NCBI GenBank assembly: GCA_035772405.1
Contig: JAYKKM010000439.1
Span: 4,781,001-4,845,000 of the forward strand
DNA from: Chrysogorgia sp. JL179-B06
Taxonomy: Eukaryota; Cnidaria; Anthozoa; Scleralcyonacea; Chrysogorgiidae
Length of the DNA stretch: 64,000 nucleotides
Direction of reading: 5' to 3'
Shown here: positions 1 to 41,600 of the stretch, piece after piece
How the letters are laid out: each line of letters starts with the position of its first letter
How positions within the stretch are numbered: the stretch's first letter is position 1
Program-made: the position numbers and the translations under genes
The notes under the pieces: generated by a model
What the model was told of the DNA's origin: nothing
Databases searched by the model: none
What the model saw: the letters and a program-made list of their open reading frames with translations, nothing else

Positions 1-925
1 CACCAAGTGTGGAGTACACAAAGGCTTCTATGCTTTGATTTAGATATTGCAGCCCAATGTTGGTAAAGCCGTCTGACAATCGCGCGACGTATCGTCTGTA
101 ATCGTTCTGAACGTCGTTGAGTGTGTACACTCTGGACTCGCCTAAAGTGCCATCGCTCAGGACTTTATTCTGGTAGTAATGTTTTCTAGGAATCTTGGAA
201 ATCTTACCATACAATTCGGAAGCGTTAAATTCTCTACTTATCGATTTCATGGTCTCACCACCTTCCATTCTTCTGAGAAGTCTCCTAATAGTGAAGTACA
301 CATGAAATCTCATCACACTTGTGACCACAGGGTGAACTTCTTGTGACACTGATAAATGTTGCAACGACACTCCACAGCAGAAACTTGCACAATACGTCGC
401 AAACACAACACGATAGTAAGATTCGCTGTCGTCCCACTTCGACACGGTCTTTGACGTGGTGATTTGTAAGGTTGGTAGCTTTGACATGAAGTAACTGTTT
501 TGGTTAACAAAAACTTTAAAGTTATTCACTGGATAATTTAACACGTTTTCTGTTGGGTAGCCGTCCCAAAGCCCCCAGTGGTTCTTATGACCTTTTGGTA
601 GTGGTTGGATAGTTCCACCACTTTGCCATATTATTGGGAACTTACTATTGTGTAGCCACTTCCACATGTTTTTATCATTTTTGAAAGTTGCGCTGGTTAT
701 GTCTGTGCTGAGGATATCATTGTTTCTGAAATATATGTCGACACTCATGATTTTACCATCTTGCGAGATATTTGGATAGAACTCGAATTTGCTTAAAGTG
801 GCGTGGGGGTACTTTTTGATGAGGTCTGCCTTTGCATCGTGTGTAGCCTTTGATGTGTTAGCCATCGCACGTTTGTAGTACTTCCCATAGTAGTCATGAA
901 GGGCTTTCTGCATATAATATACCAT
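1..925 (-). CDS. Divergent Polinton-element protein, unknown function (3' part cut by window edge)
   Basis: An open frame runs without a stop from ATG at 925 leftward to base 1, about 308 codons. An in-frame stop at 929-931 fixes the upstream limit; a second ATG at 913 is possible. Visible stretches include HDYYGKYYKRAMAN near the start, SVDIYFRNND, and an Arg-rich FHVYFTIRRLLRRM around two thirds along. I see no signal peptide, no clear membrane span and no motif I can name. It is transcribed away from the capsid/integrase operon, and its start lies only 12 bp from the start of the + strand gene, so the two share a promoter. Codon use and intronless state match the other genes of the element, so I infer it is a structural or accessory Polinton protein. 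The reading frame is seen; the role is not known. Confidence 0.75.
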   Translation of the reverse strand, partial: MVYYMQKALHDYYGKYYKRAMANTSKATHDAKADLIKKYPHATLSKFEFYPNISQDGKIMSVDIYFRNNDILSTDITSATFKNDKNMWKWLHNSKFPIIWQSGGTIQPLPKGHKNHWGLWDGYPTENVLNYPVNNFKVFVNQNSYFMSKLPTLQITTSKTVSKWDDSESYYRVVFATYCASFCCGVSLQHLSVSQEVHPVVTSVMRFHVYFTIRRLLRRMEGGETMKSISREFNASELYGKISKIPRKHYYQNKVLSDGTLGESRVYTLNDVQNDYRRYVARLSDGFTNIGLQYLNQSIEAFVYSTLG

Positions 926-940
926 ATGTTATACATAATG
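911..940. promoter_or_regulatory. Compact divergent promoter of the Polinton-like element
   Basis: The 12 bp between the two divergent ATGs (925 on -, 938 on +) and their immediate surroundings are almost pure A/T with TATAATATA- and TTATACATA-like strings. Similar A/T strings sit directly before other starts in the cassette (for example at 2727-2736 and 6053-6060). The sequence is seen; promoter activity is inferred. Confidence 0.4.
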
Positions 941-1621
941 CGAAAGTTGACGGTACTCATTGAAGGTGCGGAAAAAGTTGTGTCCTTTGACAACGCAATA
1001 ACGATCATGAGTGACAACCCATACATTATGGTCAAGACAGCTACCGTGTTTTGGGACTACGACAACGTACTGGCGAACACAATCGACTTTTCCTTCAGTG
1101 GCTCTAGTGGTCTCATACAACACTCACTACCTCAAGGACACTATAACTTCAACGCGTTGGTTGAGTACATAAGGCTCCAGATCCCCAACATGGGGTCAAC
1201 TCTTGAAGTAGAGAAAACCCCACCTGGTGGGTGTAGAGTAAAGACTGCGATCCCGTTTAGATTGCTGAGGGTTGGACCTCTTCTTGGCTTTGCGGAAAAC
1301 ACATTAATCCTAAGTGGGAAGAGGTGGCACGTCAGCCCAAACAAGGTTGATATGTACAGAGGTCTGAAGTACATAGAGATCTCATGTGACATTGTTAACC
1401 CTGAGAGCAATGTGGGTATTGATGGAAAGCGTAGCAATGTGATCGCAACGTTGCCAATACCCACCGAACAGTCATTGAAGGGGTCAGTGCAACGCCATGT
1501 AGACATCGAATCCAAGGTGGGTGTTAAAAAAGGTGTTTACTCAAGTGTGACGTTTCGCGTCAAACCAAATAACGACGATCTCAAAATTGGCGCGGTGTTA
1601 TTGGAACTGTATATTGTGTGA
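938..1621 (+). CDS. Penton-like minor capsid protein candidate of Polinton-like element
   Basis: The open frame extends up to an ATG at 896, but ATG 938 (MRKLTVLIEG, 227 residues) is the better start: it sits in the A/T promoter and leaves the divergent gene its own start. The protein is rich in alternating hydrophobic/polar stretches typical of beta-sandwich folds and carries a conserved-looking core GKRSNVIATLPI near residue 165 and a hydrophobic C-terminus ending VLLELYIV. I recall similar proteins beside capsid-like genes in cnidarian Polinton elements, where the minor capsid is a single jelly-roll of this size. The stop lies 5 bp before the integrase ATG. The assignment rests on length, context and recollection, not on a computed fold. 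Confidence 0.55.
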   Translation: MRKLTVLIEGAEKVVSFDNAITIMSDNPYIMVKTATVFWDYDNVLANTIDFSFSGSSGLIQHSLPQGHYNFNALVEYIRLQIPNMGSTLEVEKTPPGGCRVKTAIPFRLLRVGPLLGFAENTLILSGKRWHVSPNKVDMYRGLKYIEISCDIVNPESNVGIDGKRSNVIATLPIPTEQSLKGSVQRHVDIESKVGVKKGVYSSVTFRVKPNNDDLKIGAVLLELYIV

Positions 1622-1626
1622 ATTAT

Positions 1627-2730
1627 ATGGAACTTGGTGTGGAGACAGAACAAGGGTTGCGAGACATCTATTATAATCCTAAGACAGGGTACAGTGGCGC
1701 AGAGAGGTTGTATCAAAGTGCATTGGGAGACGGATTGAAAGTAACTAGAAAAACAGTGAAAGAATGGTTGACAGCGCAGGACACTTACACTAGGTACAAA
1801 CCCATCGTGAGAAGACATAAATTCCGCGCGACTTTTGTTGGGTTTCTTGGTGAAGAGCTCCAAATGGACTTAGTGGACATGAGTAAGTACTCAAAACAGA
1901 ATGGAGGTTATTATTGGATATTGACAGGCATTGAAATATTGAGTAGATACGCTTTTGGCATTGCAGTTTATAGAAAAGACACTAAGAACATGACTAAGGC
2001 TGTTGGAAAATTGTTGGTTGACTTTAAAGATCGGTTTGGGGTCACACCTAAGTTAGCGCAATTTGACGATGGACTTGAGTTCTACAACGTTGGTGTGAAA
2101 AGTTTACTGAAAGAACATGGTGTTGAATATTTCAGCACTAAGAGCGATAAAAAGGCCGCTGTTGTTGAGCGTTTTAATAGAAGTCTGAAGAGCATTATGT
2201 GGAAGTACTTCTACGCCCATGGAACGTACAAATGGATTGACGTTCTTGACCAGTTTGTGAGCAATTATAATAGCAATGTGAATCGAAGCATTATGATGAA
2301 GCCGAAGGATGTCAATAAGTCAAATGAGGGTGAAGTTTGGACCACTTTATTTGGTCATCAATTTGCAGACAACCCATTGCCAAAGTTTAGAGTTGGCGAG
2401 TCAGTGAGAATTAGTAAATACAAGAGTGTGTTCACAAAGGGCTATGAAGCCAACTTCACTGAAGAGCTGTTTAAAGTGGTAAAGGTTATTCGTGGTGATC
2501 CGAATGTGTACGAAATTGAGGATCACACCGGTGAACAGATTATTGGTAAGTTTTACGAACAGGAATTATCGCTGGTCAATAGGAAACATGGTGGTGATGT
2601 GTACAGAGTTGAAAAGGTGTTGAAAAGAAAGAAAGTCAGAGGGAAGAAGATGGCGCTGGTCAAATGGTTGGGTTATGAGAGCAAACATAATTCGTGGGTA
2701 CCAGAAAGCGACATTCAAAATGTGAGCTAA
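1627..2730 (+). CDS. Chromodomain retroviral-type integrase of Polinton-like element
   Basis: Catalyses insertion of the element's linear DNA ends. The start is ATG 1627; an in-frame GTG at 1618 overlaps the previous stop and is unlikely. The DDE core is visible: Asp81 in QMDLVDM, Asp148 in FDDGLEFYN and Glu181 in VVERFNRSLK, with about 32 residues between the last two. A C-terminal chromodomain covers roughly residues 319-364, with YRVEKVL, VKWLGY and NSWVPESDI giving the aromatic cage pattern. No N-terminal HHCC zinc motif is seen, only a short helical region. Integrase plus chromodomain beside capsid and packaging ATPase genes is the hallmark of Polintons rather than of LTR elements. The frame is intact over 367 residues, so the copy may be recent or active. 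Confidence 0.93.
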   Translation: MELGVETEQGLRDIYYNPKTGYSGAERLYQSALGDGLKVTRKTVKEWLTAQDTYTRYKPIVRRHKFRATFVGFLGEELQMDLVDMSKYSKQNGGYYWILTGIEILSRYAFGIAVYRKDTKNMTKAVGKLLVDFKDRFGVTPKLAQFDDGLEFYNVGVKSLLKEHGVEYFSTKSDKKAAVVERFNRSLKSIMWKYFYAHGTYKWIDVLDQFVSNYNSNVNRSIMMKPKDVNKSNEGEVWTTLFGHQFADNPLPKFRVGESVRISKYKSVFTKGYEANFTEELFKVVKVIRGDPNVYEIEDHTGEQIIGKFYEQELSLVNRKHGGDVYRVEKVLKRKKVRGKKMALVKWLGYESKHNSWVPESDIQNVS

Positions 2731-2736
2731 TATAAT

Positions 2737-4173
2737 ATGGCTGAGGGTGGGGAAGGTTTTGACGAGGTCGAGATGGAAATCCTCGGTGAGTACGAAGACA
2801 TGAGTGGTGAGCGACTAGAAAAGAGGCTCATCTATCTCGAAGAGTCAATCGAAGACATAGACGATGAGCACACTGAAGACGATATGCCGGAAGACGTTCG
2901 TGTTAATTACAACGACTATCAAGACCAAGCGAAAAAGATAAGGAGTGAGCTAGACGCGAGACGAGATTGGCAAAAAGAGACGTCATTTATTGACACTGAC
3001 GATGGTAAGACGGTGACAATAAGGGGAACTAACACAGAAGTCCCCGCGGTGGAGTTTGTTGAACAGGAGTCATATGGTGACGTCGATGACACAAGCTTCA
3101 ATCTAGCTCTTGAAGTAAGGTCGGACGATCTTTATAAAAGATTGGATGAGCTAAATGTGTTCAACAAAGAGGTAGTAAAAAATCAAGTAAAAAGAGTCAC
3201 GGCGATAGGTAAGAAAATACGTAAGTTGTATAAAAAAAAACTCGGTCTCGACGACACGTCAAGGGAAATAGTCAACAGGTCGCAGGTCATGGACTCAGGG
3301 GCTATTCTTTTCAAACCGATAAACAAAGATGGTAAATATGGAAAACCTAAACGAATTCTAATACCTGGGAAAAAAGGTTTGATCTTTAGTAAAGACGTGA
3401 GTAGTAAAAATGCGATTGAGCAGTTCAAAAAGTTAGTTAGTCAAATCCCTGAGAATGTAGAAACAACAGTTGTCACAACAGAAGTGGCCCCAGACGACTT
3501 CCCAGTAATTGAGACAAGAGTGGGCCACGACGACATACCTGGGCTAACACCAAACGAGAACCGTGAGCTGAGTGGTGTGCTTAATCCAAGTGAGAGTGCG
3601 TTGCGTGAGTCAAGAATAGGCGACACTGGTGCGTTGCAAGCGCAGGCAGACCACTTTCAAGAAGTGATAGGTGAAACGAGTGGGAGATTGGCAGAGCTTA
3701 ATAGAAAAGCTGACCAAATTGGTCTCACGCCTGACGAAGAGCGAGAGTACGCTAGCTTGTTTGAAAGAGAGTCAGGACTTGAGCAAGCCAGAGATAGAAC
3801 CCTAGAACAGCGCAAGCTTGAGGAAGTTAGAGAGCAACAAGAAGTCGACATTGACAGATTTCAGAGATTCAAGGAATGGGCTAAAGAAAACACGGTCGGG
3901 TTGAGCGCTGTGGCAATTTCAGTGGCTGGAATTATAACAACAATTATTATCGCTGGTAGATCCGCTGTTATGAGAGGCGCTGTGGCCACGAGGTCATTCG
4001 CACAGGCTGTTAAGAACGCGATAACGAAGATGGGTCCATGGGCTGTTGGGTTGGCTAATTTAGTTTACAACGCGTTGACGTTGGGTGCGAAGGGTCTCGC
4101 ATGGCTGGCTCAGAATCTGTGGGTACTTGCGGTGGTACTTATGCGTGGTTTGTGTATGATTATTACAAGCTAA
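2737..4173 (+). CDS. Coiled-coil protein with C-terminal membrane segments (Polinton-like element)
   Basis: 478 residues starting 6 bp after the integrase stop. The first 60 residues are strongly acidic. A central part (about 300-385) is rich in Glu, Gln, Arg and Leu and looks like a coiled coil. It is followed by a hydrophobic span at about 388-408 (VGLSAVAISVAGIITTIII) and a second, longer hydrophobic region at about 430-475. A basic middle section includes KRILIPGKKGLIF. There is no enzymatic motif. The architecture suggests a virion membrane or scaffold/minor structural protein anchored by its C-terminus; I recall similar proteins next to the capsid gene in other cnidarian elements of this kind. 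The topology is visible; the function is inferred. Confidence 0.75.
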   Translation: MAEGGEGFDEVEMEILGEYEDMSGERLEKRLIYLEESIEDIDDEHTEDDMPEDVRVNYNDYQDQAKKIRSELDARRDWQKETSFIDTDDGKTVTIRGTNTEVPAVEFVEQESYGDVDDTSFNLALEVRSDDLYKRLDELNVFNKEVVKNQVKRVTAIGKKIRKLYKKKLGLDDTSREIVNRSQVMDSGAILFKPINKDGKYGKPKRILIPGKKGLIFSKDVSSKNAIEQFKKLVSQIPENVETTVVTTEVAPDDFPVIETRVGHDDIPGLTPNENRELSGVLNPSESALRESRIGDTGALQAQADHFQEVIGETSGRLAELNRKADQIGLTPDEEREYASLFERESGLEQARDRTLEQRKLEEVREQQEVDIDRFQRFKEWAKENTVGLSAVAISVAGIITTIIIAGRSAVMRGAVATRSFAQAVKNAITKMGPWAVGLANLVYNALTLGAKGLAWLAQNLWVLAVVLMRGLCMIITS

Positions 4174-4203
4174 AACGGTAGTGATAAAACATATGTAAAG
4201 TAT

Positions 4204-5442
4204 ATGAACGTCACGTCAGCAGAGTTGAGTCCTGGTTTTAGACGAGCGACTATGGGTGTCATAAAAGGGGCGAGAACGCAACACGTAATCACGTTGAACC
4301 CTAATAAGGCCAGTCCTGGCGAGGAACTCTACATTGACATACCGAAGCTCAAGGTTAGTAGCTGTTTGGTGCCTGGATCGTTGGGTCTAGTGTTCGACTT
4401 TAAGAATGCGAACGCCAAAAGCTGGTTCTTGAATAATGTTAGCAAGTTGTTGGTTGAGAAACTTGTTGTGAGACTAGCTGGGGAAACTGTGTATGACAAC
4501 AATGGGGAAAATTACATTGGTGTCTATCGCGACCTTTGGGAAAGTGTTACTGCGCGAGACCGAATGATTGACTATGGTATTGGTGGTGAGAACTTGAGAA
4601 AGCTAATTTCTAAGGATGACAGTGGTGCGACGAGTGGGAACGTCGCTAAAGTTAGTGACGCGTTGATGTTTGGTGTGATTGGGACGAAGCAGCGGATTAA
4701 GCTCGGTAAGATCATGAACGACCATGGGTTGTACGCTCCTTTTAGCATGAACAACAACTTGCAGTATGTGATCACACTTCCGAAGGCCACAGACATCATG
4801 GTGGCGCAATCCGGTAGCGCTGTGGGCGGATACACTCTGGAGAACCTCGAGCTTGAGTATGAGACGATTGATAACCAGGAGCTCGCTGACGAAATAGCGT
4901 CAGGCTATGCAAGTGGTCGTAGTTTGTCATATGAGCACATCACGTTGATGAAAACCACCGAATGGGACAAAGGCACGACCATTGTGAACGAGAATGTTAA
5001 TCTTCCAAGAAAAAGCATGAAGGCAATTGTGTTGCTATTCACGAATAAGGTGCGAACAGACAGTGAGGAGTTTCTTTACCCAAATATCGAGAGTGTTAGA
5101 GTCACAATCGAAGGCGTGCCAAATAGCGTGTACTCACAGGGTATTCCAAAGTCGAAGTTCTACGCAGAAGCGAAGCGACTGTTTGGGTTGGGTGAAGAAC
5201 ACGCTCAGTTCATAACCATACAGAAGTTCTATAAAGATGGCTTTGCGTTAGTCATCGACTTGAGGAGTGTTCAAGATAATCGCAATATCGCCACTGGCAA
5301 GAACATTGTAAACACACAATCCGGCGTGCTTCTTGAAATCACTAAGAAAGCGACGACTGCAAATGTTATGTGCAGGTTGTTTGTGATGAGTGATGGGTTG
5401 GTCAACTTTGTGAACAATGGGTTGCATTCAATCTGGAATTAA
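4204..5442 (+). CDS. Major capsid protein candidate of Polinton-like element
   Basis: 412 residues, ATG in an A/T-rich leader 30 bp after the previous stop. The sequence has ELYIDIPKLKVSSCLVPGS near residue 40, VEKLVVRLAGETVYDNN near 85, and repeated beta-rich blocks through to a C-terminus ending GLHSIWN; there are no transmembrane segments or catalytic motifs. It lies between a structural membrane protein and the packaging ATPase, where double jelly-roll major capsid genes sit in Polinton/adintovirus-type elements. It is shorter than the roughly 600-residue capsids of many Polintons, which suggests a distinct lineage. I recall related cnidarian proteins; the double jelly-roll fold itself has not been computed and is an inference. 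Confidence 0.65.
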   Translation: MNVTSAELSPGFRRATMGVIKGARTQHVITLNPNKASPGEELYIDIPKLKVSSCLVPGSLGLVFDFKNANAKSWFLNNVSKLLVEKLVVRLAGETVYDNNGENYIGVYRDLWESVTARDRMIDYGIGGENLRKLISKDDSGATSGNVAKVSDALMFGVIGTKQRIKLGKIMNDHGLYAPFSMNNNLQYVITLPKATDIMVAQSGSAVGGYTLENLELEYETIDNQELADEIASGYASGRSLSYEHITLMKTTEWDKGTTIVNENVNLPRKSMKAIVLLFTNKVRTDSEEFLYPNIESVRVTIEGVPNSVYSQGIPKSKFYAEAKRLFGLGEEHAQFITIQKFYKDGFALVIDLRSVQDNRNIATGKNIVNTQSGVLLEITKKATTANVMCRLFVMSDGLVNFVNNGLHSIWN

Positions 5443-5457
5443 ATCAAACACAATTTA

Positions 5458-6057
5458 ATGGAAACTCCGTTTAATATGTTAATCGTTGGTATGACAGCTT
5501 GTGGTAAGACGCATTATTTACTCAACACACTGGAATCTGAGTATCGCGGCAAATTTGACTACATTGTGTTGATTTGTCCTACTTTTGAGTGGAACAAAGC
5601 GTATCAAGATTGGAAATATGTGCGCGACCCTGACGTGTTAGCGATAGACTGTGCGCAGGATAGTGTTGACGCTGTTCTCAAGTGTGTAACAAATGTTTTT
5701 AAAGGCACTAACACTCTGATTGTGTTGGACGACTGCGCAAGTGGGCAGGACGTCAAGAATAGGACTAGTCAATTAGTCAACTTGGCTTTTAGTGCGCGAC
5801 ATTTTATGTTGAGCGTTATTGTCATCACACAACAACTGACGTCGATCGCAAAACCGTATAGAGAAAACATTAGTGAGCTCGTTTGCTTTTACTGTCCGAG
5901 CAGAAGTGATATGAAGGTTGTTATTGACGATTACCTTGGGCACATTAGCAAAGAAGAAGTGTCGGCGATTGTGACCGCATTAAAAAATAATAAATACGCT
6001 AGACTTGAAATCTCACTGCGCTATCCATACAGTCACGAAGTTGTTATTCCGCAATAA
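5458..6057 (+). CDS. FtsK/HerA-type DNA packaging ATPase of Polinton-like element
   Basis: 199 residues that would power loading of the element's DNA into a capsid. Walker A is GMTACGKT at residues 11-18, Walker B is TLIVLDD at 86-92, and a polar ITQQ (123-126) follows at the end of the next strand, the order seen in A32-like packaging ATPases of Polintons and nucleocytoplasmic viruses. The length is normal for Polinton ATPases. The gene begins 15 bp after the capsid candidate and ends 3 bp before the next gene. All catalytic residues are present, so the copy appears functional. Confidence 0.9.
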   Translation: METPFNMLIVGMTACGKTHYLLNTLESEYRGKFDYIVLICPTFEWNKAYQDWKYVRDPDVLAIDCAQDSVDAVLKCVTNVFKGTNTLIVLDDCASGQDVKNRTSQLVNLAFSARHFMLSVIVITQQLTSIAKPYRENISELVCFYCPSRSDMKVVIDDYLGHISKEEVSAIVTALKNNKYARLEISLRYPYSHEVVIPQ

Positions 6058-6060
6058 AAT

Positions 6061-6570
6061 ATGGGTATAAGTAATAGCGTGATGGTAAAACGCAAAAGTG
6101 AAGAAAATCCTACGATTGAGGAATTAGTTGAGGACACTGATGGTACTTCGACTGTGGAAGACAACACTGACGTTAGGAGAGCTGAACTTATTAGACTGTC
6201 TGGTGACGGTGTGGTAAGCCAATCTGAAGCGTACATTAAAAAAGCGTCCGCAAAGGTTATCGATAAGATATGGCGCCAATACGAGTTGAAGAGAATGGAA
6301 ATTGCAAACGCTTTTCTCACCGACTTGCTAATCAGCAAATTCGCTAGCTTACTAGATGGGTTGAACGCTATTGAAAACCCTGACGAACTAAACGACGAGT
6401 TGCAAAAAGACTCGCTACTAAAGAAAGACGTTGAGAGCATTGTCGCGGTTGTGACACCGTACGTGCCTTTCTTAGGCTTGTTGTCGGGAGGAATCACAAC
6501 GTCGAAATATGTATACGATCACCATTTTAGAAGTGCGACAAACACTGAAAATAGTGAACAAACGGACTAA
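6061..6570 (+). CDS. Small acidic Polinton-element protein with N-myristoylation-like start
   Basis: 169 residues, last gene of the cassette. The N-terminus MGISNS fits the MG-x3-S pattern recognised by N-myristoyltransferase. An acidic stretch (about residues 14-35) is followed by an amphipathic helical middle rich in Ala, Lys, Leu and Glu and a hydrophobic patch YVPFLGLLSGGI near residue 138. I do not recognise a family. A capsid-associated or membrane-contacting role would fit the lipid signal, but this is speculation. The frame is intact and codon use matches its neighbours. Confidence 0.7.
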   Translation: MGISNSVMVKRKSEENPTIEELVEDTDGTSTVEDNTDVRRAELIRLSGDGVVSQSEAYIKKASAKVIDKIWRQYELKRMEIANAFLTDLLISKFASLLDGLNAIENPDELNDELQKDSLLKKDVESIVAVVTPYVPFLGLLSGGITTSKYVYDHHFRSATNTENSEQTD

Positions 6571-7105
6571 TCTATTATTAACAGGTGGCAATAATCTAAT
6601 TTGCATAACAGGTGGCAATTTTATCACGCGTGAGACACTTTTACGATACATAAATTCGTAAAAATGTTTAAACGACTATTTTTTAAATGTGATTTGACAA
6701 ATTTGTGAAAATGTTGAAACGACACTTTCTATTTTTTAAATGTGATTTGACAAATTTGTGAAAATGTTGAAACGATTATTTTTTAAATGTGATTTGACAA
6801 ATTTGTGAAAATGTTGAAACGACACTTTCTATTTTTTTAAATGTGATTTGACAAATTTGTGAAAATGTTGAAACGGCACTTTCTATTTTTTAAATGTGAT
6901 TCGACAAATTTGTGAAAATGTTGAAATGACACTTTGTCACTTTCTATTTTTTAATATGTGAGAGTGGGCTCGTACCACATTTTATTTTTTTTAACACGCG
7001 AAAATGTTGAAATGACACTTTCTATTTTTTCCTAAATGTAATTTGACATAAATTTGTGAGAATTTTGAAACGACACTCTCTATTTTTTAAATGTGGCTGA
7101 AATGG
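6571..7105 (+). repeat. Subterminal tandem repeats, 53-bp unit
   Basis: After two copies of a short AACAGGTGGCAAT motif (6580-6618), about seven imperfect copies of a 53-bp unit follow from about 6655. Each holds AAAATGTTGAAACG, ACTTTCTATTTTTT and TTTGACAAATTTGTG. Copies become more divergent and suffer small indels to the right. Polinton ends often carry subterminal tandem repeats, so I read this as part of the element's right flank. Confidence 0.8.
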
Positions 7106-7230
7106 TGTCAAATTTAGCGAGAGTCGCGATTTAGTATAAATTTGGTATTGTTTCGCTAGTCTCGCGTGTGTTTGACATCAATTTAGTAGAAAACGTGTGA
7201 GGGGTGTCTAGATTGACTAACGATCGCTGT

Positions 7231-7399
7231 AGTAGTATAGAAGGTAGGGCTGCGAGCTTATTCGATGTTAATCGTAAATATAAATACCAAAACATCGCCA
7301 AATTTGTCGAGTCGCGACTTGGCCAAATTTGGTGATGTTTTGGTGTTTATATTCACAGTTGAGGTCGATTGAGCTCGCAGCCCTACCTTCTATACTACT
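7231..7399. repeat. 169-bp palindrome, probable terminus of the Polinton-like element
   Basis: The arms AGTAGTATAGAAGGTAGGG (7231) and its complement (ending 7399) match over 28 bp. After a diverged stretch they match again in an inner pair (ACCAAAACATC) around the centre GTCGCGAC at 7311-7318. No direct repeat flanks the palindrome (CGCTGT on the left, AACCTC on the right), so it is not a simple inserted MITE. The outer end reads AG inward, which fits Polinton termini. I infer that the element ends at 7399; the other end lies outside the window. Confidence 0.55.
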
Positions 7400-7400
7400 A

Positions 7401-7460
7401 ACCTCCCGAGGGACTTTCACAAACCTCCCGAGGGACTTTCACAAACCTCCCGAGGCTTAC
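7401..7460 (+). repeat. Tandem 22-bp repeat next to the element end
   Basis: Nearly three copies of ACCTCCCGAGGGACTTTCACAA stand directly outside the palindrome. The same words occur inside the foldback at 15.2 kb, so this is a repeat-family fragment. Confidence 0.7.
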
Positions 7461-7960: not shown

Positions 7961-9030
7961 ATATTTAAACACCGTTGAACGATTGAACCCAGACGTTGCT
8001 ATTGGACGATTGCTTCATTATATCAAAAATACAATGTGTTCACTAACCGTCACCATGCACACATTTGTATAAAAGAGAACAAAAAGAACAAAGACTTTCG
8101 TTGAGTTTCCAGACCATATACCTCCATAATCTCCCTTGACTATGGCATGATCCGTGAACTCTATTTTCGGAATATAGATGAATATAAGATGGATAATATT
8201 ATATTATAAAATAACATCATGTACACAACAAGCGCTCTGATGGGTCAATATCCGTGTTTGGATCAAAGTTTGGATCAGAGTATCCAAACACGGGAATTTG
8301 AGGTCTTGTACACACAAAAACTAAATCATGCCAGCCCATCATCGTTTTTAAACATTTATTAACACTATATACATATGCACAATAACTATAAATATAATAT
8401 AGCAATCTTCCTTGTTAATTTTCACGAGATTTTGCAAAAATAGGCCGAAAATATATAGGAAATTATAAGTATTTAAAGTTGACAAAGGAACGCTAAAGCG
8501 AACGAGATTTTCCGTATAATTTGTGAGGGGCGAAGTTTACCTTATTGAAAGTTTTAATAAAACCCAAAAAGAAACACTTTTATAGATATAGTACACCAAG
8601 GTGTAAAATGTTTATTTTACCCCTCGTCGAGCAGGATATTCACGAAGAAACCATTCATTTTGTTCTTGTAGTGTGAGAGAAAACCACAAAAAAGATTCTG
8701 TGTTGTAGAATATGAAGGAAAGGCAAATTCACAAAATCACAATCATAATTCATAAAGTTAATCGTCATATTTTCGGGATTAAGTCCATCCGGAAATATCT
8801 TTCTCAGCATGTTTTCCTGATGTTTTTACCTCGAGCTACAGGTAGCTTATTTTCGACTGTTTGCTGTCGTCAGCGTCATAATAGAAAACCATCCATGATT
8901 GGTCGATTAGTTTAGAAGAACATGAAAGACCTCCCCTGATTAGTAGTTGATGGTTTTGGGGAGAATTGCAATGTTGATCTAATGATATTGATAACTTTTT
9001 GTGATATTTCTCTGGTTATTTTATAAAATA

Positions 9031-9210
9031 AATACCTAATGGTTTTCTGTGTTTGGATACTCTGATCCAAACACTTGGGATGTCGCTCGACTTTCGAAAA
9101 GCTAAAAACACTCGCCTAGCGACTCGTGCATGATTTTTAGGCTTTTCTCAAGTCTCACAACATCCCGCGTGTTTGGATCAGAGTATCCAAACACGGGAAA
9201 CCATTAGGTA
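9031..9210. repeat. ACCTAATGG foldback, copy 1
   Basis: An inverted repeat with ends ACCTAATGG / CCATTAGGT and inner arms GTGTTTGGATACTCTGATCC / GGATCAGAGTATCCAAACAC. Non-coding. Confidence 0.75.
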
Positions 9211-9679
9211 TATACCGCGTGTTTCGTATTACATCTCAAACAAATCAGTATTTTGAGAGAAAATCGAGGTGAAAGTTGGCTTAATTTATGCAATTTCTTC
9301 CTGCCTTGTACAAATTATCTTTGTATTCACGTAATATATCTCAAACTAATTAATAATTCATGAGCCGAAAACAAAGGAAATCAGCACCGAGACGGAGGTC
9401 TGGATATCGTAAGTGCAAAAGTTTAAGATTATAAATAAATGAAAAGGCCAAGCAGAGATAGGCACTTTGATGCTTTTGGATTTATATTAATGCCTCCACT
9501 GAAATAAACTTTTTTCCACTGAAATAAACTTTTTAATATTAAATATATTTCTAAAACTGTTTCGTCTAAACATCACTGTTCCATTTATTACAGCAACTGT
9601 TTTTATAATTTAACTGAAGATTATTTATATTATGACATCCAATTATCGAAAAAGAGGCTGTGACTGGTAAATTTAAGAA

Positions 9680-9805
9680 ATACCTAATGGTTTCCGTGTT
9701 TGCATGGATAACATAATCCAAACTTTTTTAGCTTTTCGAAAGTCGAGCATGCAACATCCCGCGTGCTTGGATCACGTTATCCAAACACGGACACCCATTA
9801 GGTAT
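9680..9805. repeat. ACCTAATGG foldback, copy 2 (shortened)
   Basis: Same ends and GTGTTTG/CAAACACGG arms as copy 1, with part of the centre missing. Confidence 0.7.
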
Positions 9806-10749
9806 TTCTTTTATAAAATAACCACAGAGAAATATCACTAAAAGTTATTAATATAATTAGATCCACCTTGCAATTTTCCCAAAAACCGTCAACTACTAAT
9901 CAGGGGAGATCATGGATGGTTTTCTATTATGACGCTGACGATAGAAACAGCCGAAAAATAAGCTTGAGTTAAAAACATCAGAAAAACATGCTTCGAAAGA
10001 TGAAAAAGTTATTTTCAGATGGATTTAATCACGAAAATATACCGTTTAACTTTATGTTGGATTGCTGCAGATGTAAAGTGATGTTGTGAGTTTGCCTTGC
10101 CTTCATATTCCACAGAATCTTTTTTGTGGTTTTCTCTCAATATCAAAGTGTTGTTCGGTGATTTTTTGTTGGCTACAAGAACAAAATGAATGGTTTCTTC
10201 GCGAATATCCTGCCCGACGAGAGGTAAAATAAACATTTTAAACCTTTTCCATGTTCTCTTGGTGTACTATATCTATAAAAGTGTTGTCTTTTTGGGTTTT
10301 ATTGAAACTTTCAATAAGGTAAACGTCGCCCTCACAAATTATACGGGAATTCTTGAAAATTAATAGGGAAGATTTTATTTATAGTAATTGTGCATATGTA
10401 TAGAATGTTAATAAATGTTTAAAAACGACGATGACGGGCCGGCATGCATGATTTGCTTTTTGAATGTGTACAAGACCTCAAAATTCCCGTGTATGTCTTA
10501 TACAAACACGGGTATTGACCAATCAGAGCGTTTGTTGTGTACATGTTATTTTATAAACATGTTTTCCTGATGTTTTTTACACTCAAGGTTATTTTCGGCT
10601 GTATGCTGTCGTCAGCGTCATAAATATAATAGAAAACCATCCAACCTCCTGTGATTGGAAGTTGACGGTTTTTGGGAGAATTGCAATATGTTGATCTAAT
10701 TATATTAATAACTTTTAGTGATATTTCTCTGTGGTTATTTTATAAAAGA

Positions 10750-10920
10750 AATACCTAATGGTTTTCCGTGTTTGGATAACGTGATGCAAACACTTGGGAT
10801 GTTGCTCGACTCGAAAATCTAAAAAACACTTGCCTATCGGCTCGTGTTTCTTTACGCTATTCTTAAGTCTCGCAACATCCTGTTTGGATCACGTTATGGA
10901 AACACGGAAAACCATTAGGT
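10750..10920. repeat. ACCTAATGG foldback, copy 3
   Basis: ATACCTAATGGTTTTCCGTG at the left is answered by CACGGAAAACCATTAGGTAT at the right. The central arms contain GGATAACGTGATGC and GGATCACGTTATGG. Confidence 0.75.
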
Positions 10921-10967
10921 ATTTCTTAAATCCAAACTTCGCCTCAGTTTTCAACTACAAACTTCTT

Positions 10968-11195
10968 GGTGTTTGGATATCCTGATGAAACACTCTTCCT
11001 TGTGTTTGATATATTACATGAAACACGAGGAAGAGTGCTTCATCATGAGGATATCCAAACACCGAGACGTATTGAAAACCGAGGTTTTTTAACACACTTC
11101 GAGGTGTTTGGATATCCTGATGAAACACTGAGTGTTTCATCTCTTTCCTATTACATCTCAAACAAATTTTAAGAGAGATATCCAAACCTTCGTCT
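10968..11195. repeat. Nested GTGTTTGGATATCC foldback
   Basis: GGTGTTTGGATATCCTGATG and its complement CATCATGAGGATATCCAAAC (11040-11060) form a hairpin. A further half copy follows at 11100-11190. Open frames on both strands here are products of the repeat. Confidence 0.65.
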
Positions 11196-13395: not shown

Positions 13396-13869
13396 TTATT
13401 TGTTGCCATTTTTCTTAATACCATTGCTGGAAGTGCTGTTACAATGATCTGCCGTATTAGACTGTTTCTTCTTATTCAGGGTTTTCATGTATTCGCGTCG
13501 TGGTGCTTTTTGTTTCGAATGATCAGTTCTGGTCCATCGTTCATAACGAGCAACTACTGTTGTGTTGTTTGTTAGTTTATGACTTGATACTCCAGTGGTG
13601 ATCAGTTTATTCCAAGGACTGTAGAAAAACCAATAGATCCCGTTAATAGGATCTTCATCAATATCATCAACGGTGCTAACTTCAGCACCAATATCAGGGA
13701 ACGTTCGATACTTGAACGAGTGTTTTGCACTGTCTTCTTGAGCAATTTGGAGCAAGTTAAACACAGTGGATCCTTCAGGTATACTCAAAGTGATGCTATT
13801 TGGAGGAGTTCGCTCTGGGCCGAGGTCTACTCCGTATTGAATTCGAAATGTAACAGTGATGTTTGCCAT
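13396..13869 (-). CDS. DUF4430 / transcobalamin-like C-terminal domain protein
   Basis: 157 residues in a single open frame. An in-frame TGA lies 6 bp before the ATG with no AG acceptor between, so the ORF starts here. Residues about 25-110 fit the DUF4430 domain found at the C-terminus of transcobalamin and intrinsic factor: GSTVFNLLQIA, then DINGIYWFFYSPWN-like spacing (seen as NGIYWFFYSPWN), then GVSSHKL and VVARYERW. In vitamin B12 carriers this domain closes over cobalamin. Here the large alpha-barrel domain and a signal peptide are absent and the tail is basic (NKKKQ, IKKNGNK). It may be a stand-alone domain gene, an exon of a longer gene or a retrocopy. An AATAAA overlaps the stop codon. 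Confidence 0.65.
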   Translation of the reverse strand: MANITVTFRIQYGVDLGPERTPPNSITLSIPEGSTVFNLLQIAQEDSAKHSFKYRTFPDIGAEVSTVDDIDEDPINGIYWFFYSPWNKLITTGVSSHKLTNNTTVVARYERWTRTDHSKQKAPRREYMKTLNKKKQSNTADHCNSTSSNGIKKNGNK

Positions 13870-14199
13870 CCAAATTCAGCAATATATACGTTTGGAAACG
13901 AACTGCTAATCAGTGTAGTGGGCAGTGGTGTGACGAAGAAAATCTAAATAAAACATTAAAATGAAGATAAAAAGAACTAACAATAATCCCCACGGGATTG
14001 AAATTTTTGCAGTTTGATCCTTCAAAAATTTTCCGCAATTATCCCACAGAGGAGAGCAGTAGTCGAAATAATGTTGCACTAAGGCTTTATCAAAAATAAC
14101 TTGCAGTGTATCACCTGGTACAAAAGGGTTAACGCGTCTAAGAACTCCAATGGCAAATGCCCTTCTTACAAATTGTTTCTATATGTTTTCCCCAACTAA

Positions 14200-30382: not shown

Positions 30383-33183
30383 AGTGCCTATGCAGCCCTT
30401 TCGTTTTTTAGTTATGTGTATAGAGGATCAAAAAATAGCTGATAAATTATTTTACAGTTTTTTATTTGGAATTTTCGTTTAGAAGATATTTTGCATCCAA
30501 ATTAAGAAATGTAAGCAAATTCCGATTAAAAACCAAAAACGTATTTCTGCCAATTCTGGAGTCTGGAAACTAGGTTGTGACGTCATTTAAGAGATGAGTC
30601 CTGAGGATCTTCCCAGCGTCGTAATCAAACGAGCTCGATTCCCAGATTATACTATAAAATTTAACGATGCTTATAAAAGGTGTAGAAATGACCTTAACAA
30701 ACTAATTCACTCTACTAAAGAGCAATATTTTAAAACAAAATTAAGCAAAGCTAAAAATAGCAAAGAAAGCTGGCAAGCTATTAATGAATTGTTAAATAAG
30801 AAATCCAAGACCACGCAAGTCAAACAATTGAACGCTAATGATCAAATTTTAACTGGAGATAAAGATATTGCTAATGGATTTAATAAATATTTTTCAACAA
30901 TTGGCTCTAAATTAGCTGATAATATTAAAGACAGTGATATTGATCCATTGAGCTTTGTGACTCCTGTTGAAAACTCGTTCTATTTCAGAAATGTGACCAG
31001 TCTGGAATTAATGAACACTTTAAGCCAGTTAAAAACTAAAAAATCATCAGGTATTGATGGTATCAGTGTGAAGCTATTAAAAGACGCTGGTGAAACTATT
31101 ACTGAGTCGCTATTGCGCATTTATAATCTGTCACTTCAGACAGCAATCTTCCCTGAGGACTGGAAATTAGCTAAAGTTTCGCCAATCTTCAAGGAAGGAG
31201 ATAAAACTGATTGTGGTAACTATCGACCAATTTCGGTAATCTCTGTTGTCGCTAAACTTTTTGAGAAATTGGTATGCAAACAGCTAAGATTATTTATGAC
31301 TGAAAATAATATCCTCGTTGAACAGCAGTCTGGTTTCCGGTTACAACATTCTACCGAAACTACGTTGCTTAGTTCTACGAATGAATGGCTATACAACATG
31401 GATAAAGGTATGATTAGCGGTGTCCTGTTTTTAGATCTCAAAAAAGCATTCGATACTGTTAATCATGAGATCCTTATCTCAAAACTTGAATTTTATGGTA
31501 TAAGAGGGAACACTCTCGAATGGTTTAAGTCCTATATCGGGAACAGAAAACAAATTTGTGTAATAAACGGCAGATCATCCGATACAGGGGAAATTGGTTG
31601 TGGAGTACCACAAGGATCTAACCTTGGTCCCATCCTTTTTTCTCCTGTATATAAATGATTTACCGAATTGTTTGGAAAAAACTGAGGCGACTTTATTCGC
31701 AGATGATACGAATCTCACTTGTAAAGGTAATAATTCCTATGAGATACAAAATAAACTTAATAATGATCTCGATAATGTTCACCAGTGGCTTATGGCAAAT
31801 AAACTCACACTCAATAAAACTAAAACCGAATTTATGATTATTGGCTCCAAATATCATCTGGCCTCAATTAACGAAAGCCCTGAAATAAGCATAGGGGGTG
31901 ATAAAATCAAACAAGTCCCCCATAAGAAATCACTTGGTGTAACTCTTGATGAACAGCTGAAGTGGGGAAAACACAATGAAGTACAATGTAAGAAAATTTC
32001 GAAAAACATTGCTTTACTTCGAAGGGCAAAATCTTTTGTTCCCCAAAAAATTCTAATAAATATGTATAATGCTTTAGTGTTGCCTCACTTCACATATTGC
32101 TCAACTGTCTGGAACGATGGTTGTATTACTCATATTAATAAACTTTCAAAACTACAAAGGAGAGCGGCGCGTGTTATAACTGGTGATACTTACAATGTTC
32201 GTTCCACTGAAATTTTAGAAAAACTTGGTTGGATGTCAATTCACGAGATTCTAGGAAATCGTCAAACTTTGATGACATTTAGAGCATTGACATCGAAATT
32301 ACCAAATTATCTTGTTGACTTATTTAATACTTGTGATAATGAAAATTACAATTTACGAAGTAATGGCACTAAACTTACTTTGGCAAAACCAAATACTAAT
32401 TACCTTAAAAGAAGTTACTCATATAGGGCTGCAATTTCGTGGAACGAACTGTCCAATGAAGTAACTGACAATTATCAAAGTCTATCTATCTCGTCATTCA
32501 AACGACGACTTAAGAATCTTTCATAATTGAATAGCTGACGACTTGTAATATAATTGTGTATATTGACTTACATTTGTATTTTTATTTTAGTATTGTTTAT
32601 TGATATATTTGTATAGTTAGGTTTATGATGTATTTATTTTTAACTATAATAGCACGGCCCTTTGAAAAACAGTTTTACTGAATAGGCTACCGTGTATAAA
32701 GAAATTTAATTAAAGATTAAAGATTAATTAAAGATTAAAGTTTATATTGAACTATTCAATAATGTCAGACAGATACGCAGTGTATGGATGTTCTAATGAA
32801 GCGAATTTGAAAGAAAAATATCTGTCCATCGTATCCTTACTTAAACGATACCTTACTTGAACGATACCTTACTTGAACGATACCTTACTTAAACGATACG
32901 CGGACAGTAAAGATGATCGAATATCGCATAGAGAACTTGCAGTGTGTTTAATACAGTGTTTACAAGTTCCCCAAGGCAAAACACAACATTCGTCTCTTAA
33001 ATGACGTCACAATGTGGCTCGTTCCAGGCCTTTCTAATTTGCGGCTTTTGATATAAATAGCAATGTTTAAATAGTGATATCTTCTAAACGAAAAGTCCAA
33101 ATAAAAAACGATAAATTAACTTATCAGCTATTTTTTCATCCTCTATACAGATAACTAAAAAACGAAAGGGCTGCATAGGCACT
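30383..33183. mobile_element. TTAA-MITE variant split by a LINE
   Basis: AGTGCCTATGCAGCCCTTTC at the left and GAAAGGGCTGCATAGGCACT at the right, both next to TTAA (30379-30382, 33184-33187). The arms continue with TCGTTTAGAAGATAT and complement, and GTGACGTCATTTAAGAGA and complement, before the LINE. The right interior contains a 16-bp tandem repeat (CCTTACTTGAACGATA, about four copies, 32835-32900). Confidence 0.85.
30594..32745 (+). pseudogene. CR1/Jockey-type LINE, 5'-truncated, one frameshift in RT
   Basis: A long frame (30594-31658) covers the pre-RT region and RT fingers/palm: KKSSGIDGISVKLLKD, DWKLAKVSPIFKEGDK, NYRPISVIS, FLDLKKAFDTVNH and GVPQGSNLGPILF. A single indel in a T-rich tract near 31640 shifts the frame. 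RT continues to 32526 with YINDLP, the catalytic LFADDTNL, the C-terminal LPHFTYCSTVWND and WNELSNEV, then stop. The endonuclease domain is absent. The 3' end carries ATTAAAG repeats (32700-32745). It is the best preserved LINE in the window, but this copy is dead. Confidence 0.9.
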
Positions 33184-38600: not shown

Positions 38601-41600
38601 AGTTGAGGTTAGGGGCACTTTAACTTTTCGTGCCAGACCAATGTTCATTTGTCTAAATTTCTCGGTTTGTTTTCTTATATTTAACAAATAATTTCTTTCT
38701 TATATTTGTTTTATTTGCAAATTTTCCGTTGCTCCTGACTTCTTTCCTTATGTGTTCACTTTCTTCATTGTTCTTAACTGCTTTAAGAGTTTCTATTGGC
38801 AGGAGTGTTGCTCCACCAGCCAAAAATCCGAGTAGCACAAAGAGCAACGGCGTTTTTTATAGCGATCTTTTTCGTCACTAACGAACGTTATGCACGGAAT
38901 ATACCACTCCGCGTTTTTCGAATGCCTGTTAGTCATGAATGCATTATTTGGAAAACCAAAATTCCTTTTTGAATAAGTTTTATAATTGAAAATAGTGTGA
39001 AGACTCGGGAAAAAACATCGAAAAAACCACAGCCATTAATCAGTGTTCACAGTAACACACTCACAAGAAGTTTAAACTGCGTAGAATTACGCTTCCGAAA
39101 GTCTTCGGTCCTTATGCCTGTCAAAACTACCAAAGGCTCTGCTGCATTGAATGCAAATATTGTGATCCATGGTTATTTATCTTGTTGTCAGACTTTAACA
39201 GGTTGGTCCAGGACTCCAGGTGTATACAAATTAGTCTTGTTATCAATTTTATTTAAAAAAAATTTCAACCGACAGTGCAGGTAAATTTTTTCGGGAAAAT
39301 TTGTCTCGGAAATCACGGGAAATGCCCTCATAGGGCTTTGAAAATTCAAAATTGTAGAGTCCTGAGTACGAGTCGTGACGTCAGATCACGCGAGTTCGCT
39401 GATCTTTGTTTTTGTCGATATCTTTGTGTTGTGAACCGTTCACTGTGATAAATAAAACGTTTAAAACACTACATTGGCGACGAGGTAAACTGATCAACGT
39501 TGGCAAAGGGATAGCGACATCTCGTGCGACTACGAAGCGAGCTGATTTAAACCGAAAACAGTTATGCCGACGTTTGGAAAAGTCGACGAATATAATGAAA
39601 CCGAGGAATGGCGTCATTACGTAGAACGTGTAAACCACTTATTCGAAGCCAACGAAATCACGGATGGAGACAAAAAGCGATCTATTTTCTTGGTTAGCGT
39701 TGGAGCAAAAACATACAAGCTCATCAGAAGCCTAGTTTCGCCTGCAGATCCGAAGGAAAAGAGCTATGAAGACCTGGCAAAGCTAGTACAAGAACACTAC
39801 AAGCCGAAGCCTTCCGTGATAGTTGAACGTTTTCGCTTCAATACCCGCAGCCAGCAACAAGATGAGACCATTCCAGTGTTTTTAGCTGAGTTACGACACC
39901 TCTCTGAAAATTGTGAATTCGGAGCATCTTTAGAAGAAATGTTGCGCGACCGTTTAGTTTGTGGGTCGAGTAACGACAAGATTCAACGTCGCCTGTTGGC
40001 TGAGCCAAAATTGACTTTAAAGAGAGCAATTGACTTGGCAACAGCCTTCGAAACATCCGAGAAAGATGCTATGGATTTGCATAAAAATAATTCCTAAGGA
40101 AATTCGGTGAACCAGTTAGGAGGTTCAAGGGACCTTCCCAAGGAGCACGAAAAAGACAACCCAGTCAAGTGTAGTCGATGTGATGGGAACCACAACCCCA
40201 GAGAATGCCGCTTTAAAGAAGCTAAGTGCCATGCATGTGGGAAAATTGGTCATATCTCCAGGGCCTGTCGCAGTAAAGAACAGGGGAAGAAAACACCGGG
40301 TGAACAACAGTGGAGACGTAGGCCATACAAGCCTCAAGCAAACCACCATCTCGAAGGTGAAGAAAAGGAAATGGGAGGAAGGGAAAGCGAAGATTTATAT
40401 GAACTGTTTACATTTGATAACAGACACCCATCACCATACAAAGTGAACATGGACATCAATGGGACACCCCTAGATATGGAAGTCGACACAGGAGCATCCC
40501 TGTCAGTGATGAGTGAGGAAGCATACAGGAATTACCTATGCATGGCTCAGGTCTAATTCTGTGAAGGTTTGACCACCAGCAAGCTTTGTGTAGAGATCAT
40601 CCAACTTGGGAATGGGGTATGCATCAAGCTTGGACACTTTGTTGACTGTGAGTTTATAATCACCACATACTCTCACAGTTCCATCTGATTTGACTACTGG
40701 CACGATGGGAGTGGCCCACTCCGAATATTGGACCGGTTGGATTGTCCCAGCTTTCTCTAGCCTGTCTAGATCCTGTTCGATCTTCTCTCTGAGGGCATAT
40801 GGCACTGGTCTAGCTTTGTGGAATATCGGCGTGGCAGTCTGGTCAACATGGATCTTTGCTGTAGTCCCTTTCAGAGTGCCAAGGCTTTCTTCAAATAGCT
40901 GGGGATATTTTCTTATCACCCCATCCAGCTGCTGACTCCTGGGGTTAGTTGTTTGATCATATGCCACTTCAATTTAATCTTCTCCAACCAATTTCTTCCA
41001 AGGAGAGCTGGGCCTTTCCCTTCCACCACCAGCATGGGCAATTTGTATTCCCTGCCGTCATAGGATACCATGACATCTACAGACCCTTTGGGTTTCACCT
41101 TTTCCCCAGTATATGTGTGTAGCACCACCTCGGTTTTTGCTAGTGGGGGTTGTCCCCTCTTGTTGCCCAGAGCTCAAGGAAATTCTTAACGATTAACACA
41201 CACAAGGGCCTTTACAGTTACCATCGTCTCCCATACGGCGTTGCATCAGCACCAGGGATTTTCCAGAGGACGATGGAGGGTTTGTTGCAAGGAGTTCCTT
41301 GTGTTGGAGTCCTACTAGACAATATTCTCATCACTGGAGCAACAGACGAAGAGCATCTACGTAACCTCGAGAAAGTCTTGAAATGCCTGTCTGATGCGGG
41401 TTTGCGACTTAAAGTCGGGAAGTGCCAATTTATGAAGTCGTCACTTGAATGTCTGGAACACCGAGTGGATAAAGAAGGTTTCCACCCAGTTGAAGCCAAG
41501 GTCAGAGCCATCAAATAAGCTCCAGCTCCAACAAACACAACCGAGTTGAAATCCTTTCTAGGAATTATTAACTTTTATGGAAAGTTTCTCCCAAACCTAT

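What the first reader, a model, noticed from the sequence alone, without database searches (positions are those of the whole stretch)
1..7399. Intact Polinton-like capsid/packaging cassette with unusually tight gene packing
Six + strand frames are uninterrupted and separated by 5, 6, 30, 15 and 3 bp, with A/T-only leaders instead of Kozak-type starts, in a genome where every other transposon here is broken. Integrase, ATPase and capsid-type genes together mean the element could encode virions. The 412-residue capsid candidate is short for Polintons and may mark a distinct lineage.
Basis: partly seen in the sequence, partly recalled or inferred. Interest (0 to 1): 0.75.

Follow-up and report, generated by a model that had tools for sequence, protein, structure and literature searches.

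The report
Capsid end of a Polinton element
An animal genome appears to carry one intact end of a virus-like mobile element, with genes that look able to build and fill a virus shell; it belongs to an already populated group, so it is a useful new example rather than a new kind of thing.

Summary
Six intact + strand frames lie at 938-6570, separated by 5, 6, 30, 15 and 3 bp. [quoted passage not shown] the 227-aa product, with moderate confidence, as a single jelly-roll penton. A chromodomain integrase and an A32-type packaging ATPase are present. The element seems to end at 7399 in ACTACT, the commonest right-end motif of vertebrate Mavericks. This is best read as the capsid, packaging and integration end of a Polinton/Maverick-type endogenous virus. 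The short capsid protein is not a new lineage: 471 database proteins match it, and 84 of the 120 listed have 405-417 residues; PBCV-1-like capsids were already reported for a Hydra Polinton. Polymerase, protease, left repeat and target duplication lie outside the window, and the genome search did not complete. Two features stand out: gene order differs from vertebrate Mavericks, and the right end is a 169-bp palindrome (z -16.6). The divergent gene at 2-925 is not a recognisable polymerase; it belongs to a conserved family without a Pfam match.

The parts
2..925 (-). g0: 5' part (308 aa) of a divergently read gene cut by the window edge; the six longest relatives found are 457-529 aa, four of them with a C-terminal hydrophobic segment; function unknown, perhaps a membrane-anchored virion or assembly protein
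   Evidence: frame; 17 homologues, 20-56% identity; C-terminal 19-mers with Kyte-Doolittle 1.83-2.38 in P0137, P0139, P0149, P0150; P0151 and P0152 reach only 1.27; alignment; the six longest relatives run 142-180 residues past the window edge; no Pfam family above its curated cut-off for g0; none at E 1 for the 9 homologues scanned
938..1621 (+). g1: penton (minor capsid protein) candidate, 227 aa, predicted single jelly-roll
   Evidence: model pLDDT 66.5, pTM 0.46; Foldseek ranks 1-6 all mavirus penton, best E 2.6e-6; ranks 7-9 adenovirus chains, E 2.1e-3 to 4.4e-3; VIA: PBCV-1 capsid chain 8.4, EhV 8.2, mavirus penton 7.8, tied with unrelated beta proteins; 15 homologues
1627..2730 (+). g2: retrovirus-type (DDE) integrase with C-terminal chromodomain, 367 aa
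   Evidence: chromo 3.6e-11, above cut-off; rve 1.7e-6, 28.6 bits, below the 32.6-bit cut-off; PHROG transposase 3.2e-11; IS481 2.2e-10, below cut-off; 45 distinct PDB sequences matched, all at the chromodomain; candidate catalytic D81, D147, E181, picked by eye
2737..4173 (+). g3: 478 aa, charged N-terminal part, two C-terminal hydrophobic segments; by position a candidate PW-type minor virion protein
   Evidence: 19-mers at residues 387 and 460 with Kyte-Doolittle 2.37 and 1.79; no family of note; PW by position only, compared
4204..5442 (+). g4: major capsid protein, 412 aa, predicted double jelly-roll of the PBCV-1/iridovirus size class
5458..6057 (+). g5: A32/FtsK-type genome-packaging ATPase, 199 aa, Walker A GMTACGKT and Walker B LIVLDD intact
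   Evidence: Pox_A32 8.9e-17, above cut-off; terminase large subunit family 1.2e-8
6061..6570 (+). g6: 169 aa, one hydrophobic segment, function unknown
   Evidence: 19-mer at residue 127, Kyte-Doolittle 1.82; only a PHROG of unknown function at E 0.005, nothing
6652..6935 (.). subterminal tandem repeat, 53-bp unit, about 5 copies
7231..7399 (.). right terminus: 169-bp imperfect palindrome running from AGTAGT to ACTACT; 77-nt arms, 66 of 77 identical, the 28 outermost bases exact
   Evidence: (181-nt stretch 7225-7405 folded as DNA: z -16.6, 0 of 200 shuffles as good); end motif compared
7400..7455 (.). flanking, presumably host sequence: 22-bp tandem repeat starting at the first base after the terminus; a right-hand 6-bp target duplication would be AACCTC

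Best explanation
This is the right-hand end, with capsid, packaging and integration genes, of an endogenous Polinton/Maverick-type virus in an animal, probably cnidarian, genome. Proposed cycle: a protein-primed polymerase, expected to the left, copies linear DNA from the trinucleotide-repeat ends (inferred). g4 trimers form the facets and g1 pentamers the vertices of an icosahedral shell (inferred from predicted folds). g5 pumps the DNA in (inferred from family). g3, g0 and g6 are accessory, membrane-active or cement proteins (a guess from hydrophobic segments, which for g0 are seen only in relatives). g2 inserts the linear DNA into chromatin, its chromodomain aiding target choice (inferred from domains), leaving a 6-bp duplication (expected, not seen). 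Shown here: frames, domains, predicted folds, end motif. Not shown: particle formation, replication, integration.
Against: No polymerase, protease, left terminal repeat or target duplication was seen. The rve match is below its Pfam cut-off (28.6 against 32.6 bits). The penton match does not stand out in the second aligner: PBCV-1 8.4, EhV 8.2, mavirus 7.8 (rmsd 10.1), but also seipin 7.5 and PNGase F 7.2. Searches of PDB sequences found no credible relative for g1 or g4. Gene order differs from the vertebrate Maverick plan. No relatives were found in five scans of viral contigs nor in one of prokaryote genomes.
Confidence: 0.86

Rival explanations
1. A non-autonomous or internally deleted Polinton derivative: the capsid half is intact but polymerase and protease are lost or broken, so it moves or packages only with a helper copy.
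For: No protease match among the six complete frames, whereas the capsid module of vertebrate Mavericks includes one; most vertebrate copies are degraded; the left side is unseen.
Against: All six closed frames are intact, and g0 is open as far as it is visible.
Confidence: 0.25
2. A piece of an endogenous giant virus (NCLDV) rather than a Polinton: the capsid fold is nearest to PBCV-1, Faustovirus and iridovirus capsids, and the ATPase hits the poxvirus A32 family.
For: VIA ranks PBCV-1, Faustovirus, iridovirus and ASFV above mavirus and adenovirus; BFVD top rows include several giant-virus capsids; Pox_A32.
Against: Chromodomain integrase, penton-like gene, the whole cassette within 6.6 kb and a Maverick end motif at 7399; Krupovic et al. 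report Vp54-type hits for Polinton PY itself.
Confidence: 0.05
3. Host-domesticated capsid cassette kept by selection for a host use such as antiviral defence.
For: Six intact frames in a window where the two other coding elements examined are broken.
Against: Integrase, ATPase and element terminus are kept alongside; a young insertion explains intactness without host use.
Confidence: 0.04
4. For the right end only: the 169-bp palindrome is a separate miniature element (AGTAGT to ACTACT) inserted beside or into the cassette, not the terminal repeat itself.
For: It carries both end motifs and is flanked by TA on both sides when read as 167 bp; palindromic miniature elements are common (general knowledge).
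Against: The 6-bp flanks differ, CGCTGT and AACCTC, so no 6-bp duplication; a 20-base piece of the arm, with 3 mismatches allowed, occurs in the window only in the two arms.
Confidence: 0.25

Closest known systems
Polinton/Maverick of Hydra (PY capsid protein; Krupovic, Bamford and Koonin 2014, PMC4028283; outline and first of four parts seen)
   Same: Integrating element with penton and double jelly-roll capsid genes; Hydra PY is reported to retrieve PBCV-1 Vp54 as its only significant hit, as the fold ranking here favours PBCV-1-type capsids.
   Different: No direct sequence comparison was made here. [quoted passage not shown] here two genes lie between.
Vertebrate Mavericks (PMC8097293, passages and section 7 seen)
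   Same: Integrase, minor capsid protein, an unassigned gene at the PW place, major capsid protein, packaging ATPase; (ACT)2 right end.
   Different: Order here is penton, integrase, g3, capsid, ATPase, g6, end. There the ATPase sits in the polymerase module, and integrase, minor capsid, PW, major capsid and protease form the other. No protease is recognised in the frames here.
Adintoviruses and other meldviruses (PMC11071296, section 16 and passages seen)
   Same: Chromodomain integrase; meldviruses with PolB and integrase plus capsid proteins resembling larger DNA viruses are described; a 420-aa 'MELD virus sp.' protein matches the capsid model in BFVD (rank 34, E 7.6e-12, 12% identity).
   Different: The adintovirus protein matched in BFVD (rank 7, labelled 'Penton capsid protein') is 663 aa and 9% identical; PolB and OTU domain unseen here.
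Polinton/adintovirus of the stony coral Stylophora pistillata (StCAV; PMC11071308, passages seen)
   Same: Shows that Polintons are already reported from a coral.
   Different: The passages concern its terminal protein and PolB domains, which lie outside this window; its capsid protein was not compared.
Mavirus virophage

Membership tests
Polinton/Maverick | RVE-type integrase | tested here: met
   rve 1.7e-6 (below cut-off) plus chromo 3.6e-11 (above cut-off); transposase 3.2e-11; IS481 2.2e-10 (below cut-off); candidate DDE residues by eye
Polinton/Maverick | FtsK/A32 packaging ATPase | tested here: met
   Pox_A32 8.9e-17, above cut-off; Walker A and B
[quoted passage not shown]
   predicted model only:
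Polinton/Maverick | single jelly-roll penton | tested here: met
Polinton/Maverick | protein-primed DNA polymerase B | not testable with these tools
   would lie outside the window; the genome search unreachable; none of the seven products matches one
Polinton/Maverick | Ulp1/adenain-type cysteine protease | not testable with these tools
   no match in the six complete frames; the rest of the element is outside the window
Polinton/Maverick | terminal inverted repeats with a recognised end motif | tested here: inconclusive
   right end carries (ACT)2 as; left end outside the window
Polinton/Maverick | 6-bp target site duplication | not testable with these tools
   right candidate AACCTC; left side outside the window
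Adintovirus | integrase with C-terminal chromodomain | tested here: met
Adintovirus | hexon recognisable by BLASTp against adintovirus hexons | not tested
   no reference hexon was in hand for BLASTp; a BFVD structural match to a 663-aa adintovirus protein is 9% identical
Adintovirus | PolB with N-terminal OTU-like domain | not testable with these tools
   outside the window
NCLDV (endogenous giant virus) | PBCV-1-type double jelly-roll capsid protein in a large multigene genome | tested here: inconclusive
   capsid fold close; a 6.6-kb cassette ending at a Maverick motif speaks against

The most novel reading that the evidence does not exclude
The element ends in a long palindrome that is part of its terminal repeat, so its linear DNA could fold back at each end, as in hairpin-ended or self-priming genomes, while also carrying the (AGT)2/(ACT)2 ends expected of protein priming. 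That would make it a Polinton lineage with a mixed end-replication mode, with a regrouped gene order in which the ATPase joined the capsid module.
Probability: 0.12. Interest if true: 0.55.

Novelty: new member of a known kind. Interest (0 to 1): 0.32.

Why it matters
Intact capsid cassettes are among the main evidence that Polintons may make particles in animals. This one adds a well-preserved example with a short, PBCV-1-sized capsid protein and a packed, virus-like gene layout. If the palindromic end proves to be part of the terminal repeat, it gives a concrete handle on how Polinton ends are copied.

Tried and rejected
g0 (2-925, minus) as the start of polymerase B: rejected as unsupported. 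Its 17 homologues found are 180-529 aa (candidates were limited to 0.55-1.75 times the query length, so a longer fusion would have been missed). The nine scanned have no Pfam match at E 1, and four of the six longest end in a hydrophobic segment.

Distinct-lineage claim from the 412-aa length: rejected; 84 of the 120 listed relatives have 405-417 residues, the listed range is 315-443, and 351 further relatives were not listed.

Sequence-only link to known capsids: no credible match; single-sequence searches gave none, profile searches only unrelated proteins at E 0.5 or worse. PHROGs and NCBIfam gave only weak matches, of unknown function or chance-like, for g0, g1, g3, g4 and g6 (best PHROG 0.0035 for g4 and 0.005 for g6). 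Rfam (gathering threshold) and tRNA scans of the window were empty.

Relatives with flanking DNA: five scans of viral contigs and one of prokaryote genomes gave none. No other cassette copy in the window by tblastn of the seven products (best non-self E 0.51).

Literature: nine searches. The two with palindrome or hairpin among the terms (15 of 137 papers listed; 7 of 7) showed nothing on palindromic Polinton ends by title or abstract start; I did not read those papers for it, so this is no proof of absence. Papers seen: PMC4028283 (outline, first of four parts), PMC8097293 (passages, section 7), PMC11071296 (section 16, passages), and passages of PMC11071308, PMC4642659 and PMC2836005. PMC8502044 was not held.

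Host identity: probably cnidarian, from 35 of 120 listed capsid relatives named as Paramuricea clavata and a recalled resemblance of a repeat-encoded peptide near 35 kb to ones in coral genomes; neither is proof. That Paramuricea is an octocoral is recalled.
Full report
Observation. The window opens with a minus-strand frame cut by its edge (2-925), followed by six closed + strand frames at 938-1621, 1627-2730, 2737-4173, 4204-5442, 5458-6057 and 6061-6570, with gaps of 5, 6, 30, 15 and 3 bp. In 500 random sequences with the base-to-base transitions of the same 7.4 kb, closed ATG frames of at least 165 aa averaged 0.05, with none over 302 aa; the real stretch has six, up to 478 aa. The start of the first + gene at 938 rather than 896 is supported by 13 of 15 homologues. 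A/T runs before the starts exceed those before internal ATGs (4 of 6 against 2 of 35 with runs of 4 or more, p = 0.002). Half the starts nevertheless have A at -3 and four of six have G at +4, so they are not clearly non-Kozak.

Other genes. The 367-aa product is a DDE-type integrase with a C-terminal chromodomain: chromo 3.6e-11; rve 1.7e-6, under its curated cut-off; PHROG transposase 3.2e-11; IS481 2.2e-10, under cut-off. The 45 PDB sequences matched are all matched in the chromodomain. The 199-aa product is an A32-type packaging ATPase with intact Walker motifs. The 478-aa and 169-aa products have no clear family and carry hydrophobic segments. The minus-strand 308 aa matches a conserved family; the six longest of 17 relatives found are 457-529 aa, and four of these end in a hydrophobic segment. 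It is not a recognisable polymerase. Those six run 142-180 residues past the point where the window cuts the gene.

The right end. The cassette is followed by A/T-rich sequence with a 53-bp tandem repeat and then a 169-bp imperfect palindrome, 7231-7399. The 181 nt around it fold 16.6 standard deviations below shuffles. It starts AGTAGT and ends ACTACT; the outer 28 bases of the two arms agree exactly, 66 of 77 in all. Vertebrate Mavericks most often start in (AGT)2 and end in (ACT)2 (PMC8097293, passages and section 7). Tandem 22-bp repeats begin at the next base, 7400. The two 6-bp flanks of the palindrome differ (CGCTGT, AACCTC), which argues against a separate miniature element, though it can also be read as 167 bp flanked by TA. 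Only the left end of the element can settle this.

What it is. Integrase, packaging ATPase, major capsid and penton candidates and a Maverick end motif together indicate the capsid end of a Polinton/Maverick-type endogenous virus. Protein-primed replication, particle formation and integration are inferred from families and predicted folds; none is shown. Frames this intact suggest a young or selected copy: neutral chance of no stop is 0.16 at 1% and 0.026 at 2% divergence, and lower if frameshifts are counted at an assumed rate.

Comparison. The capsid protein has 471 database relatives; 84 of the 120 listed have 405-417 residues and 35 of 120 are named as Paramuricea clavata. Krupovic et al. 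2014 (PMC4028283, outline and first of four parts) reported Vp54 as the only significant hit for the Hydra Polinton capsid. A 2024 survey (PMC11071296, section 16 and passages) describes PolB and integrase elements with capsid proteins like those of larger DNA viruses. A Polinton of the coral Stylophora is mentioned in PMC11071308 (passages). The short, PBCV-1-like capsid is therefore known in kind. The gene order (penton, integrase, g3, capsid, ATPase, g6, end) differs from vertebrate Mavericks, where the ATPase lies with the polymerase and a protease belongs to the capsid module.

Limits. Scans of viral contigs and prokaryote genomes gave no relatives. The host was not identified. Structures are predictions.

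Verdict. A sound observation with a largely correct interpretation, of a known kind. Interest is modest; the palindromic end and the regrouped gene order are the parts worth following.

Noticed in passing
6652-6935: Subterminal 53-bp tandem repeat, about five copies, between the last gene and the palindromic end.
   Followed up: partly
7400-7455: Perfect 22-bp tandem repeat (2.5 copies) beginning at the first base after the element's end.
   Followed up: partly
8200-11130: Dense nest of inverted and direct repeats (longest arms 116 nt, 94% complementary), perhaps a foldback or nested palindromic element.
   Followed up: no
13399-13875 (-): 159-aa open stretch with a DUF4430 match (4.7e-5, just above cut-off), possibly a host exon.
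   Followed up: no
30591-32523 (+): Reverse transcriptase (RVT_1) split over two overlapping frames, a broken retroelement.
   Followed up: partly
39546-43396 (+): Gypsy-like element in several frames: a weak PNMA-like match, zinc knuckle, weak aspartyl protease, H2C2 and rve integrase domains; looks broken (three of its frames scanned).
   Followed up: partly
45977-46216: 127-bp tandem repeat, 1.9 copies, in a locally C-rich, higher-GC stretch.
   Followed up: no
913-938: The divergent gene g0 and the penton gene start only 12 bp apart (925 and 938) across an A/T-rich spacer, suggesting a shared two-way promoter.
   Followed up: partly
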